The notes under the pieces: model-generated
Told to the model about the DNA's origin: nothing
Database searches by the model: none
Seen by the model: the letters and a program-made list of their open reading frames with translations, nothing else
Part shown: in pieces, positions 33,673 to 45,701 of the stretch
Layout: each line of letters begins with the position of its first letter
How positions within the stretch are numbered: the stretch's first letter is position 1
DNA from: a bacterium
Lineage (GTDB): Bacteria; JAMOTN01
NCBI GenBank assembly: GCA_027062325.1
Contig: JAMOTN010000018.1
Location: 1-46,158, forward strand
Direction of reading: 5' to 3'
Length of the DNA: 46,158 nucleotides
Translations under genes and position numbers: made by a program

Positions 33673-33999
33673 CTAATTTTCCTCCAACCAACTCCTTGCA
33701 ATAGGTTGCAACTCCTTACTCAAACTATCAATTGCCTTTTCAAACCCTTCCTTATTAAGGTAATCTGCAACCCACAAATTCAACTCTTTACCATCAAACT
33801 CAAGCAATCCCCCTGTTGTGTAAAAGCCACTTTTCTTTCCAGAAAACTCATACCCAACATAACAAGGAAGTATATCCGATACAAATGGTGCATGCCCTTC
33901 TATTATCTCAAATTTACCCACACTTGAAGCCGCTTCAAACTTACTCACCTCAACCTCTACATGCACACCATCTTTACTAAACACTCTCAAAAGCATCAT
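33673..33999 (-). CDS. atpC: ATP synthase epsilon subunit, short form
   Basis: This is the N-terminal beta-sandwich of epsilon ('GKFEIIEGHAPFVSDILP', 'FYTTGGLLEFDGKELNLWVADY'), which joins gamma to the c ring. Only about 25 residues follow the sandwich, so the usual pair of C-terminal helices, about 45 residues, is cut down to one. Regulation by an extending C-terminal hairpin is therefore unlikely. ATG 33999 follows AGAGGTG. It closes the atp operon after atpD, as usual. Confidence 0.85.
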   Translation of the reverse strand: MMLLRVFSKDGVHVEVEVSKFEAASSVGKFEIIEGHAPFVSDILPCYVGYEFSGKKSGFYTTGGLLEFDGKELNLWVADYLNKEGFEKAIDSLSKELQPIARSWLEEN

Positions 34000-34031
34000 T
34001 TTCACCTCTTAACCCGGCAAATTCACTATCA

Positions 34032-36357
<2,326 letters not shown>

Positions 36358-36416: not shown

Positions 36417-37955
36417 TTACTTCTCTTCAGCGGCTTCAAGTGCATGTCTCTTTTTAAACTCCTCTTTGAACTCTTCTATAGCCTTCTGCAACTTTTCTTC
36501 AGTTTTTTCAGATAACTCTCCTGTCTTTACTATTTCATCCAAAACATCACGCCTACTATCATCCATCCACTTCAAGAACTCTTTCTCAAACGTACGTATA
36601 AGCTCAACTGGAATATCATCCGTATATCCACGGCTCACAGCATAAATTATTGCAACTTGCTTTTCAACATCCATTGGCTCATATTGATCCTGTTTTAACA
36701 TCTCCATTATGCGACGTCCTCTTTCAAGCTGCTTTTTCGTAGCCTCATCAAGATCAGATCCAAACTGAGCAAACGCCTCAAGCTCTCTGTACTGAGCAAG
36801 TTCAAGACGAAGCATACCCGCAACTTTCTTCATCGCCTTAATTTGAGCATTTCCACCAACACGAGAGACTGACAAACCTGCATTCATTGCAGGTCTAAAA
36901 CCAGCATAGAATAAATCAGCTTCCAAGTAGATTTGTCCGTCTGTAATTGATATAACATTTGTAGGAATGTAAGCAGATATATCACCTGCCTGAGTTTCTA
37001 TTATTGGCAAAGCTGTAAGTGACCCGCCTCCAAGCTTATCAGAAAGCTTTGCTGCTCTCTCCAATAAACGGGAGTGGAGGTAGAAGACATCTCCAGGATA
37101 CGCCTCACGACCCGGGGGACGACGCAAAAGAAGTGACATCTCACGGTAAGCAACCGCATGTTTGGAAAGGTCATCGTATATAACGAGTGCATGCTTTCCA
37201 TTTTCCATAAATTCTTCTCCTATAGCACATCCCGCGTATGGGGCGATGTACTGCAAAGGAGCTGGTTCTGACGCAGTTGCAGCAACTACTATAGTGTAAT
37301 CCATTGCTCCATATTCACGGAGTCTGTGGACAACCTGAGCTACAGTAGAAGCTTTTTGACCAATAGCAACATAGATACATATAACATTTTTTCCTTTTTG
37401 GTTGATTATAGTATCTATGGCAATTGCAGTCTTTCCTGTGGATCTGTCACCTATTATCAACTCACGTTGTCCTCTTCCTATTGGAGTCATAGCATCTATA
37501 CATTTTATCCCCGTCTGAAGTGGCTCTTTAACTGGCTGTCTATAAATGACACCAGGAGCCTTTCTCTCAACTGGTCGTGTCTTTTTTGCCTTTATTGGAC
37601 CTTTACCATCAAGCGGTATTCCCAAAGGATTTACCACGCGTCCTATAAGTTCTTCTCCAACAGGAACTTCAAGAATCCTACCGGTTCTTTTAACAAGCTG
37701 CCCTTCTTTTACCTTATCAGTATGCCCAAATATAACCGCACCGACGTTATCTTCCTCCAAGTTAAGTGCAAGGCCAACAACCCCTTCTCCAAAATCCAGC
37801 ATTTCCATTGCCATGACATTTTCAAGTCCATATATACGGGCAATTCCATCTCCAACCCATATAACAACTCCCTCTTCCCTATAATCTATATCTAATTTCA
37901 CCGCCCTGGCATAATCTGCTATGACGCTAGTTACCTCTTCTGGCCTTATTGCCAT
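36417..37955 (-). CDS. atpA: ATP synthase alpha subunit
   Basis: Alpha carries the non-catalytic nucleotide sites. The P-loop is '[15 protein letters not shown]' (the usual Q before T is S). '[13 protein letters not shown]', 'VYVAIGQK'-like '[14 protein letters not shown]', '[20 protein letters not shown]' and '[20 protein letters not shown]' are intact, including the conserved arginine finger in 'SVSRVGG'. It has 512 residues, the normal length. ATG 37955 follows GGGGAGGT. The order atpH-atpA-atpG is standard. Confidence 0.97.
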
Positions 37956-37988: not shown

Positions 37989-38525
37989 TTATTCACTTAC
38001 CACTCGATTAACAAACTCATTCAACACTGCATTAACGCTCATCTCCCAAACTTTATCTTCACATCTCACACGTAAACCCGCTATAAGTTCAGGATTAACT
38101 TTCACATTCATGCTAACTCTTTTAGCAAAAAACTTCTCCAATGACTTCTTCAGAAAATCTAAAAGTTCTTTAGGTGTCTCCATAGCAACCTCCACATCAA
38201 CCTCAACTACTCCCTCTTTTCTATTTTTCAACTTTCGAAAAATCATCATAACACGCTCTATTAAATCCAATCTATTCTTCTTAATCATAAAAGAGATTAC
38301 TCGAGTCAAAACTTCAGGTACATCGTTTTGGGAAGCTATTTTTTCCCAAATACCAACTTTTATCCACCACGGAAGCACAGGATTGGCAAAGAAATTTTTC
38401 ATATTATCATCTTTTAAAAATTCAACCACAGCCATCAAACCCTTCTCTATCCTTTCCAAATCCTTACTCATTGCCATAACTCTGGCATACCTTTCTGCAA
38501 CCACCCAGCTTCCCACTTTAAACAT
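37989..38525 (-). CDS. atpH: ATP synthase delta subunit
   Basis: Delta links the b stalk to the top of F1. 'SWVVAERYARVMAMSK' at the start matches the 'VAxRYAkAL' motif of the family. The middle has 'NFFANPVLPWWIKVGIWEKIA' and the C-terminal part ends with the conserved 'LIAGLRVRCEDKVWEMSVNAVLNEF' pattern. I choose ATG 38525 since AAGGAGAGG lies 6 bases upstream and the product then starts close to the motif; a GTG at 38552 in the same frame is the longer alternative. About 178 residues. Confidence 0.9.
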   Translation of the reverse strand: MFKVGSWVVAERYARVMAMSKDLERIEKGLMAVVEFLKDDNMKNFFANPVLPWWIKVGIWEKIASQNDVPEVLTRVISFMIKKNRLDLIERVMMIFRKLKNRKEGVVEVDVEVAMETPKELLDFLKKSLEKFFAKRVSMNVKVNPELIAGLRVRCEDKVWEMSVNAVLNEFVNRVVSE

Positions 38526-38561
38526 AGCTATCCTCTCCTTAGCTTTGCTCACATTATCAAA

Positions 38562-39137
38562 TTATCCTTTCTTCTCCATTCTCTTTATAAACTTTTTGAC
38601 TATATCCTCGTGCAACTTAGCATTGACCTCTCTCGCCAAAATCTGACGCGCAACATCAAAAGCAATTTTAACAGCCTCAAGACGAACAGTCTTTACCATC
38701 TCATCCTTCATCTTATTCATCATTGCATAAACTTCATCGGTCATACTCTTAGCCTGCTCGTAAGCTGCCTTAACTATCTCCTCTTTCATTTCCTCTGCCT
38801 CTTTCCTTGCCTCTTTAAACATTCTATCTCTCTCTTGCTTAAACGCCTCTAGTTCTTTCTGCCACTTTTCCCTAAGTTCAACAGCTTCCTTTCTTGCCTT
38901 CTCTGCCTCTTCAAGACTCTTTTTTATAGAATTGTGCCTCTCATCCAATGCTTTAATCAAGGGATTGTAAAGGAGCTTGTAAAGCAGAAAAAGTAGTATT
39001 GCAAAGTTAACCCACTGAAGAATCATCGTAAAGTTCAAATTCACAACCGGTAACGCCTTTTTTTGTACCTCCGCCAGCACTGGGCTAGCTTTAAATAAGA
39101 GGTAGACTCCAAGTGCATATCCTCCTTTAAAATTCAT
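38562..39137 (-). CDS. atpF: ATP synthase b subunit
   Basis: Subunit b forms the peripheral stalk. A single membrane helix at about residues 35-57 ('ILQWVNFAILLFLLYKLLY') is followed by 'PLIKALDERHNSIKKSLEEAEKA', the classical start of the b coiled coil, which runs to the end. An additional hydrophobic stretch at residues 5-20 looks like a cleaved signal or a second membrane contact, seen in some bacterial b subunits. There is only one b gene. ATG 39137 follows AGGAGGT. Confidence 0.93.
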   Translation of the reverse strand: MNFKGGYALGVYLLFKASPVLAEVQKKALPVVNLNFTMILQWVNFAILLFLLYKLLYNPLIKALDERHNSIKKSLEEAEKARKEAVELREKWQKELEAFKQERDRMFKEARKEAEEMKEEIVKAAYEQAKSMTDEVYAMMNKMKDEMVKTVRLEAVKIAFDVARQILAREVNAKLHEDIVKKFIKRMEKKG

Positions 39138-39224: not shown

Positions 39225-39852
<628 letters not shown>

Positions 39853-39878
39853 AACCACCCACTCCTTCTCTTTTTCAA

Positions 39879-40841
39879 CTATACAACATATATCAAAATA
39901 AGTGCTATTACCATTGCATAAACTGCGGTAGATTGAGCCACTGCCTGACCTATTAACATTGTCCTCAATGCCACAGAGTATTTCGAAAATCCGTATCCTG
40001 CAGCTCTAGTTCCTTCCTCTGCTGCAAATCCACAACCGTAGCCAGGACCAATTGCCCCAAACCCCATAGATATTCCAGCTCCCAAATATGCTGCTGTTTT
40101 CACAATCCCCGCATCTTTCACAGAAAACATCAATAACAACGAAACAACAAGCGCAAATATTGACGGAGTCGATGCCGCAGACTGCCCAATCAACATAAAT
40201 GTGATTACTTTGTCTGAAAAAGAAGGTCTCCTAGCAACTGCATCACATGCAGCCGCCGCTCCCATACCTTGACCAACCGAAGAACCGATTGCTCCCATTC
40301 CAACAGAAATCCCAGCAGCTAAATAAGCCATTGCAAGTGATATTGTAGTAGGTTTTGCTATAAACATAAGAAGCAACGAAACAACAAGTGCAAATATTGA
40401 TGGAGTTGATGCCGCAGACTGCCCAATCAACATAAATGTGATTATCTTATCCGAAAAATTAGGAATACGAGCAACAGCCTCACATGCAGAAGCCGCAGCC
40501 ATACCTTGACCTATAGAAGAACCAATTGCTCCCATTCCAATAGATATTCCTGCACTCAAATAAGCAATAGCAACAGGAATAGTTGTAGCTTTAGTAATAA
40601 AAACAAGAAGAATTGCTATGACCAAAGCAAATATTCCACCTGTTTCGGCAACTGCTTGCCCTATTAACATTGTACGAGTTATTATTGGAGCAGCTTCAGG
40701 CCTCATTCTTACTCCTTCCACTGCCTTCCCCGCTGCCTGTCCCTCTCCGATTCCGGGTCCGATTGCTCCAAATCCCATCGCAACCCCAGCACCTATTAAA
40801 CCTATGGCTTCCGCAAGGCCTTTTATAGTCTCCGCAGGCAT
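39879..40841 (-). CDS. ATP synthase c subunit, four fused hairpins, one carboxylate
   Basis: Starting at ATG 40841 (GGAGGTG upstream), this 320-residue protein is four c-type hairpins in tandem, eight membrane helices, with a repeat length of exactly 79 residues. Helix-1 ion-site positions are E33, Q112, Q191 and C270. Helix-2 positions are E66, S145, S224 and Q303. So only hairpin 1 ('GQAVAETGGIF') keeps the essential carboxylate; hairpins 2 and 3 share 'GQSAASTPSIF' and hairpin 4 has 'GQAVAQSTAVY'. Hairpin 1 also has F71 where Na+ sites have Tyr. Fused c subunits with lost sites are known from V-type rotors and Acetobacterium; four hairpins with one site, in an F-type operon, is unusual. 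Confidence 0.93.
   Translation of the reverse strand: MPAETIKGLAEAIGLIGAGVAMGFGAIGPGIGEGQAAGKAVEGVRMRPEAAPIITRTMLIGQAVAETGGIFALVIAILLVFITKATTIPVAIAYLSAGISIGMGAIGSSIGQGMAAASACEAVARIPNFSDKIITFMLIGQSAASTPSIFALVVSLLLMFIAKPTTISLAMAYLAAGISVGMGAIGSSVGQGMGAAAACDAVARRPSFSDKVITFMLIGQSAASTPSIFALVVSLLLMFSVKDAGIVKTAAYLGAGISMGFGAIGPGYGCGFAAEEGTRAAGYGFSKYSVALRTMLIGQAVAQSTAVYAMVIALILIYVV
40119..40592 (-). repeat. tandem 237-bp repeats encoding hairpins 2 and 3
   Basis: The segments coding for hairpins 2 and 3 repeat with a 237-base period. In the stretch from 40141 compared with that from 40378, I count three differences in the first 67 bases, all at synonymous-type positions. Hairpins 1 and 4 are far more diverged. 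This points to recent duplication or gene conversion of the internal, site-less hairpin. Confidence 0.85.
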
Positions 40842-40863: not shown

Positions 40864-41547
40864 TTAATCCTCAACTATAGCAACTGCCAAGTAAACCAAT
40901 GCAAGCATAGCAAAGACAAACGCTTGCACAATTCCGACAAATACTCCGAAGAATCCATTGAGGATTATAGGCAACACCCACTCCTTAACCAAATATCCAA
41001 CAACTATGATAATTATTGAACCTCCAAGGATATTTCCAAACAAACGGAAAGAGTGAGATATAACCTTTGCTATCTCTCCAACTACATTCAATGGCAACAA
41101 AAGCAAGAATGGCTCAGCATAAGATTTAAGGTAGCCCCATAATCCTTTGTAATATATAGCACTACCGTGAACCACAAAGAAAACAAGTAAACCAAGCCCC
41201 AAGGTTGTGTTCAAATCCTGAGTTGGACAAACAGATCCGGGAATTATACCTATAACATTCGAGGTCATTACAAACAAAAATATGGTCATGATAAAACCAA
41301 AGTATTTACGGCCCAATTCTTCTCCAAGAGTATCAAACACTATCCCCCTGAATCCATCTATCAACCAATCGAAAAATAGAGTTATACGAGATACAGGAAC
41401 CAGCTTCGCCCCTTTCCCTGCAAGGTAAGCAAGAATGATGAGAATTGCCATAACAATCCATGTCCAAATGATTGTCATGTAGTTTACCACTATCTCATAA
41501 TTTCCAATTTTGAAGGCCCACGCATAAATCTTTCCTATGTCTCCCAT
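40864..41547 (-). CDS. atpB: ATP synthase a subunit
   Basis: Subunit a forms the ion half-channels beside the c ring. The essential arginine is R168 in 'KVISHSFRLFGNILGG'. The helices 'FGFIMTIFLFVMTSNVIGIIPG' and 'EPFLLLLPLNVVGEIAKV' are typical, and the C-terminal helix pair 'GIVQAFVFAMLALVYLAVAI' closes the protein. It is 227 residues with five or six membrane helices. ATG 41547 follows GGAGGG. It is the first gene of the atp operon; no atpI is seen upstream. Confidence 0.95.
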   Translation of the reverse strand: MGDIGKIYAWAFKIGNYEIVVNYMTIIWTWIVMAILIILAYLAGKGAKLVPVSRITLFFDWLIDGFRGIVFDTLGEELGRKYFGFIMTIFLFVMTSNVIGIIPGSVCPTQDLNTTLGLGLLVFFVVHGSAIYYKGLWGYLKSYAEPFLLLLPLNVVGEIAKVISHSFRLFGNILGGSIIIIVVGYLVKEWVLPIILNGFFGVFVGIVQAFVFAMLALVYLAVAIVED

Positions 41548-42457: not shown

Positions 42458-42531
42458 TGGCGACCCTGGGAGTCGAACCCAGAACCCTGCGGGTATGAAC
42501 CGCATGCTCTCACCAGTTGAGCTAGGTCGCC
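42458..42531 (-). tRNA. tRNA-Met(CAT), elongator
   Basis: A complete cloverleaf with acceptor GGCGACC paired to GGTCGCC, a 'TAGCTCA' D arm, anticodon loop TTCATAC, and T loop TTCGACT. The CCA end is not encoded. The body resembles elongator Met. A CAT anticodon can also belong to lysidine-modified tRNA-Ile, but the stem TGCGG/CCGCA fits Met better. Confidence 0.9.
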
Positions 42532-42563
42532 ACTTACTTTCCTCTATGCAATTCGGACCACTT

Positions 42564-42612
42564 AAAAAAGGAAGCGCCCTACCGGCCGACCATTGCCCTC
42601 AAGCGCCTCCTT
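42564..42612 (-). terminator. intrinsic terminator between tRNA-fMet and tRNA-Met
   Basis: In minus-strand RNA AAGGAGGCGCTT (42612-42601) pairs with GGGCGCTTCCTT (42579-42568), a 12-bp stem with some G-T pairs, followed by a run of T. It sits about 17 bases after tRNA-fMet, so the tRNA-Leu/tRNA-fMet transcript should stop here. Confidence 0.75.
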
Positions 42613-42628
42613 ATTGCCTTCTCAAAAG

Positions 42629-42702
<74 letters not shown>

Positions 42703-42851
42703 ATTCAATAATATCAGCAAACCAGCTGCTAGTCAAGTAGCAAAATCTACTTATGAAAATCCTCAGTGAAACTTATGAAACTTAAATTTAAACTAAAACT
42801 CTTTTAAAAAACCAGAAGGAGTACTTTAAATTTTCAACCTAAAATAAAAAG

Positions 42852-42937
42852 TGCCGGGGGCGGGACTTGAACCCGCACGGGGCGCCAACCCCAGAGGATT
42901 TTAAGTCCCCTGCGTCTGCCAATTCCGCCACCCCGGC
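42852..42937 (-). tRNA. tRNA-Leu(TAA)
   Basis: An 86-base class II tRNA with acceptor GCCGGGG/CCCCGGC, D arm 'TGGCGGAATTGGCAGACGC', anticodon loop CTTAAAA (anticodon TAA), a long variable arm and T loop TTCAAGT. CCA is not encoded. It reads UUA and UUG codons. Confidence 0.95.
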
Positions 42938-44393: not shown

Positions 44394-45701
44394 CTATTTT
44401 ATCTTAAAAACAACCACAACTATCGCATAAAGTACAGCCAAAACAGCTGCAACCAAATTCACATGCCAAGTATACTTAAACCAAGTTTTATTTGGAGTTC
44501 CTTCCATCTTCCCTAACTTTTCTATTATCGAGATAACATAAACATTAGGAGAAGAGCCTATGAATGTAAAATTTCCTCCAATTCCAACCCCCATTGCCAA
44601 AACCCACCAAAACGGCCCAACGTCAACCGTCTTTATACTGTTCAAAACCATAGCCATTGCCACGGTAAACGGAATATTATCCAGAAAAGCTGACAACCCT
44701 GCTGTAACACTTACTAATACAACTGCAGCAACAATAGGGCTTTTAGACAAAACAACTGCAAGCCAATTTGCAATCTGATTTATAACTCCTACTTCTTCCA
44801 GAGTTCCAACCAAAATAAAAAGACCTCCAAAAAACACTATCACGCTCCAATCAACCTTGGTAATAGCTTCCTCTCCCTTCACCTTTCCAACAAGCAAAAT
44901 TAAAGATGCCGCAATAAAAGCTATTAAATATTCGTGAATGTACTTAGAAATTGTGAAGAAACCTATGAACATCAAAACTACTATAGTAAGCTCTATTCTC
45001 AAACGCCAAATATTTCTTGCAATACTGGCTGCAAAACGCATCTCACTTAATTTATCAATTCGGCTTTGTTCAACCTCCGGAAATTTATCCTTAAACACAA
45101 AGTACACCACAATTAGTTGCAAGACGACCATTATAAACACTGCTGGGGCAATTTTAAATATAAACTCGTTAAAATCAAAACCAGCAGCAGAAGCTATTAT
45201 CATGTTTGGCGGATCACCTATCATAGTTGCAATACCGCTGACATTTGAAAACAATGCCTCAAGTACTAAAAATGGCACTGGTGAAACTCTTAAAAGTTTA
45301 CATGCAACTAATGTTACTCCACTAATAACAATAACAGCTGTCACATTTGCGAACACTGTTGATAAGAGGGCAATTGCAGCACTAAATGCCATCAGAAGTT
45401 TAACTGGGTGCCTACCGAATTTTTTTACCAGTTTAACTGCCATATATTCAAAAAGTTTTGTCTGTTCCAATACGTTCACTATTATCATCATGGAAAACAG
45501 CAGGATCAACGTTGCCCAATCTATGTGCTTTGCTATATCCTCTCCACTAAATAAATGAAAAAACTTACCCACCACTAAGCTCACAGCTATACCAAATAAC
45601 ACTGCTGTAATTCTATCAACAACCTTCTCTGTAAATATAAAGAGGTACACTATCAGAAAATTCACTATTATCAGTATTTTTCCAACTAAAGCCCATTCCA
45701 T
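44394..45701 (-). CDS. ArsB/NhaD (ion transporter superfamily) permease
   Basis: This 435-residue protein has about eleven membrane helices in two related halves. The first half has 'ANVTAVIVISGVTLVACKLL' and 'SNVSGIATMIGDPPNMIIASAAG'; the second has 'AFLDNIPFTVAMAMVLNSI' and 'GVGIGGNFTFIGSSPNVYVI'. The GDPPN and SSPN pairs are typical of the ArsB/NhaD/P-protein group. Substrate could be Na+/H+ exchange, arsenite or an organic anion. Na+ export would fit a Na+-coupled ATP synthase, but this is only a guess. ATG 45701 follows AAAGGGGG. Confidence 0.88.
   Translation of the reverse strand: MEWALVGKILIIVNFLIVYLFIFTEKVVDRITAVLFGIAVSLVVGKFFHLFSGEDIAKHIDWATLILLFSMMIIVNVLEQTKLFEYMAVKLVKKFGRHPVKLLMAFSAAIALLSTVFANVTAVIVISGVTLVACKLLRVSPVPFLVLEALFSNVSGIATMIGDPPNMIIASAAGFDFNEFIFKIAPAVFIMVVLQLIVVYFVFKDKFPEVEQSRIDKLSEMRFAASIARNIWRLRIELTIVVLMFIGFFTISKYIHEYLIAFIAASLILLVGKVKGEEAITKVDWSVIVFFGGLFILVGTLEEVGVINQIANWLAVVLSKSPIVAAVVLVSVTAGLSAFLDNIPFTVAMAMVLNSIKTVDVGPFWWVLAMGVGIGGNFTFIGSSPNVYVISIIEKLGKMEGTPNKTWFKYTWHVNLVAAVLAVLYAIVVVVFKIK

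What the first reader, a model, noticed from the sequence alone, without database searches (positions are those of the whole stretch)
39879..40841. Four-hairpin ATP synthase c subunit with a single ion-binding carboxylate
Eight membrane helices in four hairpins with exact 79-residue register. The essential helix-2 carboxylate is present only in hairpin 1 (E66); hairpins 2 and 3 have S145 and S224, hairpin 4 has Q303. Helix-1 partner positions are E33, Q112, Q191 and C270. Fused c subunits with lost sites are known in V-type rotors and in Acetobacterium (two hairpins, one site), and multi-hairpin c subunits in some methanogens usually keep their sites. Four hairpins with one site in an F-type operon would lower the number of ions per rotation and favour ATP-driven pumping or a different gear ratio.
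Basis: partly seen in the sequence, partly recalled or inferred. Interest (0 to 1): 0.9.

Follow-up and report, generated by a model that had tools for sequence, protein, structure and literature searches.

The report
Fused rotor subunit missing ion sites
This bacterium's ATP synthase has a rotor protein made of four fused units of which only one can still carry an ion; relatives with two to six fused units and often one or no ion site sit beside a normal rotor protein in many bacterial phyla, which probably lowers the number of ions spent per ATP.

Summary
A minus-strand gene (ATG at 40841, stop at 39879, 320 aa) encodes four c-subunit hairpins in 79-residue register. Helix-2 sites are E66, S145, S224, Q303; helix-1 partners are E33, Q112, Q191, C270. 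It lies in a complete F-type operon with a normal 86-residue c gene that has the two-carboxylate Na+ motif; a panD gene sits between them. It is not an isolated oddity. Among 73 distinct complete fused c proteins from many phyla I found 2, 3, 4, 5 or 6 hairpins; 42 carry exactly one helix-2 carboxylate and 10 carry none. The gene order a, fused c, single c, b is conserved, and close pairs give dN/dS mostly 0.01-0.2, a zero-site pair included. The nearest solved relative is subunit c1 of the Acetobacterium woodii F/V-hybrid rotor (two hairpins, one site). Best reading: an enlarged c1-type subunit of a mixed Na+ c-ring, lowering ions per ATP and leaving a wide site-free arc. Hybrid rotors are known; I found no report of three to six hairpins in F-type operons, of site-free forms, or of this spread (open-access library only). 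Ring composition and ion stoichiometry are inferred. New variant of a known kind.

The parts
39879..40841 (-). fused multi-hairpin c subunit, 320 aa, four hairpins, one ion-binding carboxylate pair (E33/E66)
40596..40832 (-). hairpin 1 with E33 and E66, 68% identical to the single c
40359..40595 (-). hairpin 2, Q112/S145, helix-2 motif QSAASTPSI
40122..40358 (-). hairpin 3, Q191/S224, 81% aa identical to hairpin 2
39882..40121 (-). hairpin 4, C270/Q303, helix-2 motif QAVAQSTAV
39225..39482 (-). single-hairpin c subunit, 86 aa, two-carboxylate Na+ motif (GIGEG / [10 protein letters not shown])
40864..41547 (-). atpB, subunit a, essential stator Arg174 present
39508..39858 (-). panD-like aspartate 1-decarboxylase gene between the two c genes
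   Evidence: PF02261, E 3e-35; just below the NCBIfam cut-off
38562..39137 (-). atpF, subunit b
37989..38552 (-). atpH, subunit delta
36417..37955 (-). atpA, subunit alpha
35527..36357 (-). atpG, subunit gamma
   Evidence: sequence; gene order in relatives
34032..35507 (-). atpD, subunit beta
33673..34005 (-). atpC, short subunit epsilon (110 aa)

Best explanation
The gene encodes an enlarged hybrid-rotor subunit of a Na+-coupled F-type ATP synthase. One copy (perhaps more) is built into the c-ring together with several 86-residue c subunits. The fused protein takes four hairpin places but offers one ion site, so the ring carries fewer ions per turn. If the ring has 11 hairpins and one fused copy, as in Acetobacterium woodii, it has 8 sites (about 2.7 Na+ per ATP) and a run of three hairpins, about 98 degrees, without a site. 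The site-free hairpins carry neutral S or Q where the glutamate was and can pass the stator arginine uncharged, while the S/T they keep next to the lost site can complete the ion site of the neighbouring hairpin. Shown: sequence, operon, family conservation, purifying selection in relatives, predicted fold. Inferred: incorporation in the ring, copy number, ring size, the ion (Na+) and the effect on stoichiometry.
For: Four ATP-synt_C hairpins and a confident fold whose best solved match is A. woodii c1, 4bem_J. A. woodii c1 has E in hairpin 1 and Q in hairpin 2 (alignment), and 4bem holds 9 chains of c2 and 1 of c1. C. aceticum has the same c1/c2 pair (PMC7911925). Gene order a, fused c, single c, b, delta, alpha, gamma, beta is conserved in nearly all loci long enough to tell. 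All 72 partner single-c proteins keep E then S/T, and 148 of 157 carboxylate-less hairpins keep S/T after the lost site, the residue that in Fusobacterium helps hold the ion of the adjacent subunit (PMC3692424). dN/dS mostly 0.01-0.2 between close relatives, 0.012 for a zero-site pair with dS 0.86. The stator Arg is present in 70 of 70 a subunits. The genome has Rnf, a membrane decarboxylase beta subunit and a membrane pyrophosphatase with a K+-type motif, which fit Na+ energetics, and no second rotary ATPase was seen (genome 84% complete).
Against: No protein-level data. Incorporation, copy number and ring size are unknown. A run of three (in relatives five) site-free hairpins may exceed what subunit a spans, so simple motor models would predict a stall or slip there. 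Hairpins 2-3 carry S rather than the commoner Q. Na+ specificity rests on a motif; Sporomusa ovata has the Na+ motif yet its ATPase activity was not stimulated by Na+ (PMC9430772).
Confidence: 0.75

Rival explanations
1. Assembly scaffold: the fused protein mainly nucleates or sizes the c-ring and is present once per ring for geometry; loss of sites is tolerated rather than selected for gear ratio.
For: No AtpI-like gene was recognised next to atpB in this operon; site number varies (0 to 3) between lineages while the fused architecture is kept, as expected if architecture matters more than site count.
Against: Lost positions are not random: Q in 123 of 171 middle and last hairpins and E in 54 of 73 first hairpins. 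This rival is compatible with ring incorporation and would still lower the ion count.
Confidence: 0.12
2. Alternative rotor: two kinds of ring are made, one of single c and one made only or mainly of fused subunits, used under different conditions.
For: Two c genes, each with a good ribosome-binding site.
Against: A ring of fused subunits alone would have no site in the zero-site lineages (10 distinct proteins) and could not move ions; both genes sit in one operon with one a and one F1 set.
Confidence: 0.06
3. Degenerate gene or assembly artefact: a tandem duplication that lost its sites by decay.
For: Hairpins 2 and 3 are recent-looking duplicates (80% DNA identity).
Against: Intact frame, dN/dS well below 1 in relatives and between hairpins 2 and 3 (dN 0.13, dS 0.64), same architecture in unrelated assemblies, conserved gene order.
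Confidence: 0.03
4. Missing carboxylates are supplied from elsewhere so that hairpins 2-4 do bind ions.
For: E275/E276 lie in helix 1 of hairpin 4.
Against: They are five and six residues loopward of the site, and no other acidic residue lies near the site level in hairpins 2-4.
Confidence: 0.04

Closest known systems
Subunit c1 of the Acetobacterium woodii Na+ F1Fo ATP synthase (PDB 4BEM chain J), F/V-hybrid rotor; also Clostridium aceticum c1
   Same: Fused c hairpins in an F-type operon before a single-hairpin c; E in hairpin 1, carboxylate lost in the later hairpin; best sequence and structure match.
   Different: Two hairpins against four here and up to six in relatives; keeps one site; helix-1 partner Q, not E. 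In the FastTree hairpin tree the Acetobacterium and Cellulosilyticum hairpins group with their own single c (97), so the origin may be separate, but an AU test did not reject one origin of all first hairpins (p 0.32).
V-type K/c subunits (Enterococcus hirae NtpK, eukaryotic c)
   Same: Fused hairpins with one site per two hairpins; next-best fold matches.
   Different: V-type enzymes, site and no site alternate; here an F-type operon, a mixed set and consecutive site-free hairpins.
Fusobacterium nucleatum c subunit with two-carboxylate motif (PDB 3ZK1)
   Same: The single c and hairpin 1 carry the E/E pair; the single c keeps S, T and Y as well.
   Different: Homomeric ring of single hairpins.
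Methanogen multi-hairpin c subunits (Methanopyrus kandleri 13 hairpins, Methanocaldococcus jannaschii 3)
   Same: Many hairpins fused in one chain (PMC2359735).
   Different: A/V-type enzymes; the M. kandleri protein keeps all sites.

Membership tests
ATP synthase c subunit (PF00137) | two-helix hairpin matching the family profile | tested here: met
   four stretches, E 1e-49; eight-helix model, pLDDT 94
ATP synthase c subunit (PF00137) | helix-2 ion-binding carboxylate in each hairpin (usual, not universal: also lost in V-type c and A. woodii c1) | tested here: not met
   present in hairpin 1 only
F/V-hybrid rotor (A. woodii type) | F-type operon encoding a fused multi-hairpin c beside a single-hairpin c | tested here: met
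F/V-hybrid rotor (A. woodii type) | site in first hairpin, carboxylate replaced in later hairpin | tested here: met
   E66 then S145, S224, Q303; c1 has E then Q
F/V-hybrid rotor (A. woodii type) | fused subunit has two hairpins | tested here: not met
   four hairpins; hence filed as a variant
F/V-hybrid rotor (A. woodii type) | both c types together in one ring | not testable with these tools
   needs a purified ring
Na+-type c subunit | Q/E in helix 1 and E-S/T in helix 2 | tested here: met
   single c: E and ES, with TGIY; hairpin 1: E and ET but F in place of Tyr70
V/A-type ATPase K subunit | encoded with V/A-type subunits | tested here: not met
   operon is F-type a, b, delta, alpha, gamma, beta, epsilon

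The most novel reading that the evidence does not exclude
A class of mixed F-type rotors, spread over a dozen or so phyla, in which one fused subunit of 3-6 hairpins with one or no site takes up a quarter to half of the ring, giving roughly 2 to 2.7 ions per ATP and a wide arc through which the motor must turn without ion exchange.
Probability: 0.5. Interest if true: 0.82.

Novelty: new variant of a known kind. Interest (0 to 1): 0.68.

Why it matters
The number of ions per ATP sets how much ion-motive force a cell needs, and is usually read off the number of identical c subunits. Here evolution seems to set it by fusing hairpins and deleting sites, down to fused subunits without any site. A run of three to five site-free hairpins also tests how far a rotary motor can turn between ion-binding events. 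Cultured carriers exist (Dethiosulfatarculus sandiegensis, 5 hairpins EQQQE; Cellulosilyticum ruminicola, 3 hairpins EQQ), so both questions can be put to a purified enzyme.

Tried and rejected
Assembly duplication rejected (80% DNA identity at most, longest exact run 37 nt). Decay rejected. Carboxylates supplied from elsewhere: none near the site. V/A-type operon rejected. Naming the organism failed: all 59 genomes offered as relatives were only of the same domain, and a beta-subunit tree placed it near no named row. No coordinates of the models were available, so ring curvature could not be measured. The idea that Acetobacterium c1 arose separately is suggested but not supported by the AU test. 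Counts from two genome collections overlapped; one search counted 81 proteins, and reduced them to 73 distinct ones, which are the numbers used. Brandt and Muller 2015 and Matthies et al. 2014 are not in the library.

Full report
Observation. The gene lies on the minus strand. Reading out that protein gives E33, E66, Q112, S145, Q191, S224, C270 and Q303 exactly as stated. Pfam ATP-synt_C matches four times. AlphaFold2 with 11 relatives predicts eight long helices with pLDDT 94 and pTM 0.90. In the model helix 2 is unbroken at E66 but is interrupted exactly at S145, S224 and Q303 (model numbering +1); the model of the six-hairpin relative L003 shows the same at each of its five Q positions and not at its E. 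This is a feature of models only.

Artefact check. Hairpins 2 and 3 are the most alike, with 80% DNA identity and a longest exact run of 37 nt; other pairs are at 49-66%. Between hairpins 2 and 3 dN is 0.13 and dS 0.64, so they have diverged under constraint. Relatives in unrelated assemblies have the same architecture.

Context. The operon is atpB, fused c, panD, single c, atpF, atpH, atpA, atpG, atpD, atpC. The single c (86 aa from its ATG) has E in helix 1 and ESTGIY in helix 2, the two-carboxylate Na+ motif of Fusobacterium nucleatum (PMC3692424). Only these two c genes were found in the genome; the other ATP-synt_ab hits look like FliI and Rho (my reading of the sequences). The genome, an 84% complete assembly of 1.65 Mb, encodes rnfC, D, G and E, a decarboxylase beta subunit with a biotin carrier and a membrane pyrophosphatase with the GNTTAA motif. 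All fit Na+ energetics without proving it.

Family. A search of 84,980 species genomes returned 79 loci. Splitting the ORFs with a hairpin profile showed fused c proteins of 2, 3, 4, 5 and 6 hairpins, nearly always followed at once by a single-hairpin c. In 386 sampled genomes about 20 besides this one had a fused c. After removing near-identical proteins I counted 73 distinct complete fused proteins: 14 with two hairpins, 31 with three, 22 with four, 1 with five, 5 with six. Helix-2 patterns include EQQQQQ (five six-hairpin proteins labelled Deltaproteobacteria), EQQQ, EQQ, EQE, ESSQ (this window) and GQQQ. Forty-two have one carboxylate, 18 have two, 3 have three and 10 have none; seven of the ten are Hydrogenedentota-type. 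The first hairpin keeps E in 54 of 73; middle hairpins have Q in 74 of 98. In 157 carboxylate-less hairpins the next residue is S or T in 148. All 72 partner single-c proteins keep E followed by S or T. Loci without a visible single c end at or near a contig edge as far as checked, except the unlike case L083/L131/L133. The fused genes lie in the order a, fused c, single c, b, delta, alpha, gamma, beta. The stator arginine (Arg174 here) is present in 70 of 70 a subunits. dN/dS between close relatives is mostly 0.01-0.2; the zero-site pair L028/L029 has dS 0.86 and dN/dS 0.012. By record titles the carriers include Thermodesulfobacteriota/Deltaproteobacteria, Spirochaetes, Cloacimonadota, Coatesbacteria, Planctomycetota, Hydrogenedentota, Termititenax, Latescibacterota, Omnitrophota, Mcinerneyibacteriota, Tritonobacter and Bacillota.

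Origin. In a tree of 161 hairpins, position in the chain (first, middle, last, single) groups hairpins across phyla far better than chance (19 changes against 89 in shuffles; 14 against 46 in a smaller IQ-TREE set). This suggests mainly one old origin with later gain and loss of middle hairpins. The data are short (76 columns) and most forks are weak. This window's hairpin 1 is closest to its own single c (68-70%), so gene conversion or a fresh copy is possible. Acetobacterium and Cellulosilyticum hairpins group with their own single c (97), which hints at a separate origin, but an AU test does not reject one origin of all first hairpins (p 0.32).

How it most likely works. By sequence and fold the closest solved protein is A. 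woodii c1, present once beside nine c2 chains in PDB 4BEM (chain counts), giving 10 Na+ sites (PMC7793690). By analogy the four-hairpin protein takes four places in the ring and gives one site. With 11 hairpins and one copy the count is 8 sites, 2.7 Na+ per ATP and a site-free arc of about 98 degrees; for a six-hairpin EQQQQQ protein it is 6 sites, 2.0 Na+ per ATP and about 164 degrees (arithmetic). Ring size and copy number are assumptions. A lower ratio needs a higher ion-motive force per ATP but spends fewer ions; workers on acetogens read this as an adaptation to low-energy life (PMC7911925; PMC5662883). Neither ring composition, ion specificity nor expression was tested here.

Known and new. 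Hybrid F/V rotors with a two-hairpin one-site c1 are known from A. woodii and C. aceticum. From memory, Brandt and Muller 2015 listed about a dozen anaerobes with one F-type and one V-type c gene in one operon; the paper is not held. A 2026 paper notes two to four atpE copies in Desulfatiglandales and, in the passages read, does not describe fused hairpins (PMC13343851). In nine searches of the open-access library I found no text describing F-type c subunits with three or more hairpins, or fused subunits without any site; subscription papers could not be searched. I therefore call it a new variant of a known kind.

Noticed in passing
window 39508-39858 (-): A panD-like aspartate 1-decarboxylase gene is inserted between the two c genes of the ATP synthase operon; not seen between them in the related loci. 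It scores just below the NCBIfam panD cut-off.
   Followed up: partly
L019, L027, L028, L029, L035, L048, L051, L060, L066, L117, L120: Fused c subunits (mostly four hairpins, GQQQ) without any helix-2 carboxylate, under strong purifying selection where a close pair could be tested.
   Followed up: yes
L083, L131, L133 (genomes G002 and G290, 1.2-1.3 Mb): A different four-hairpin c (pattern E, Q, E, D) follows directly after an F-type subunit a, but the next gene is a glycosyltransferase-like gene, with no b or F1 genes in the 3.9 kb seen.
   Followed up: partly
L048: A contig labelled Nitrospiraceae carries the Hydrogenedentota-type GQQQ fused c; possible misbinned contig or transfer.
   Followed up: no
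window 33673-34005 (-): Subunit epsilon is only 110 aa; the Pfam match covers the beta-sandwich domain, and a LisH-like match at the cut-off covers its C-terminus.
   Followed up: no
window 44394-45701 (-): A CitMHS/NhaD-like transporter gene lies upstream of the operon beyond an M18 aminopeptidase gene and three tRNA genes (42458-42937); possibly a Na+ transporter.
   Followed up: no
whole genome G000: No genome nearer than the same domain was offered among 59 relatives, so the assembly may stand for a lineage with few other genomes held.
   Followed up: no
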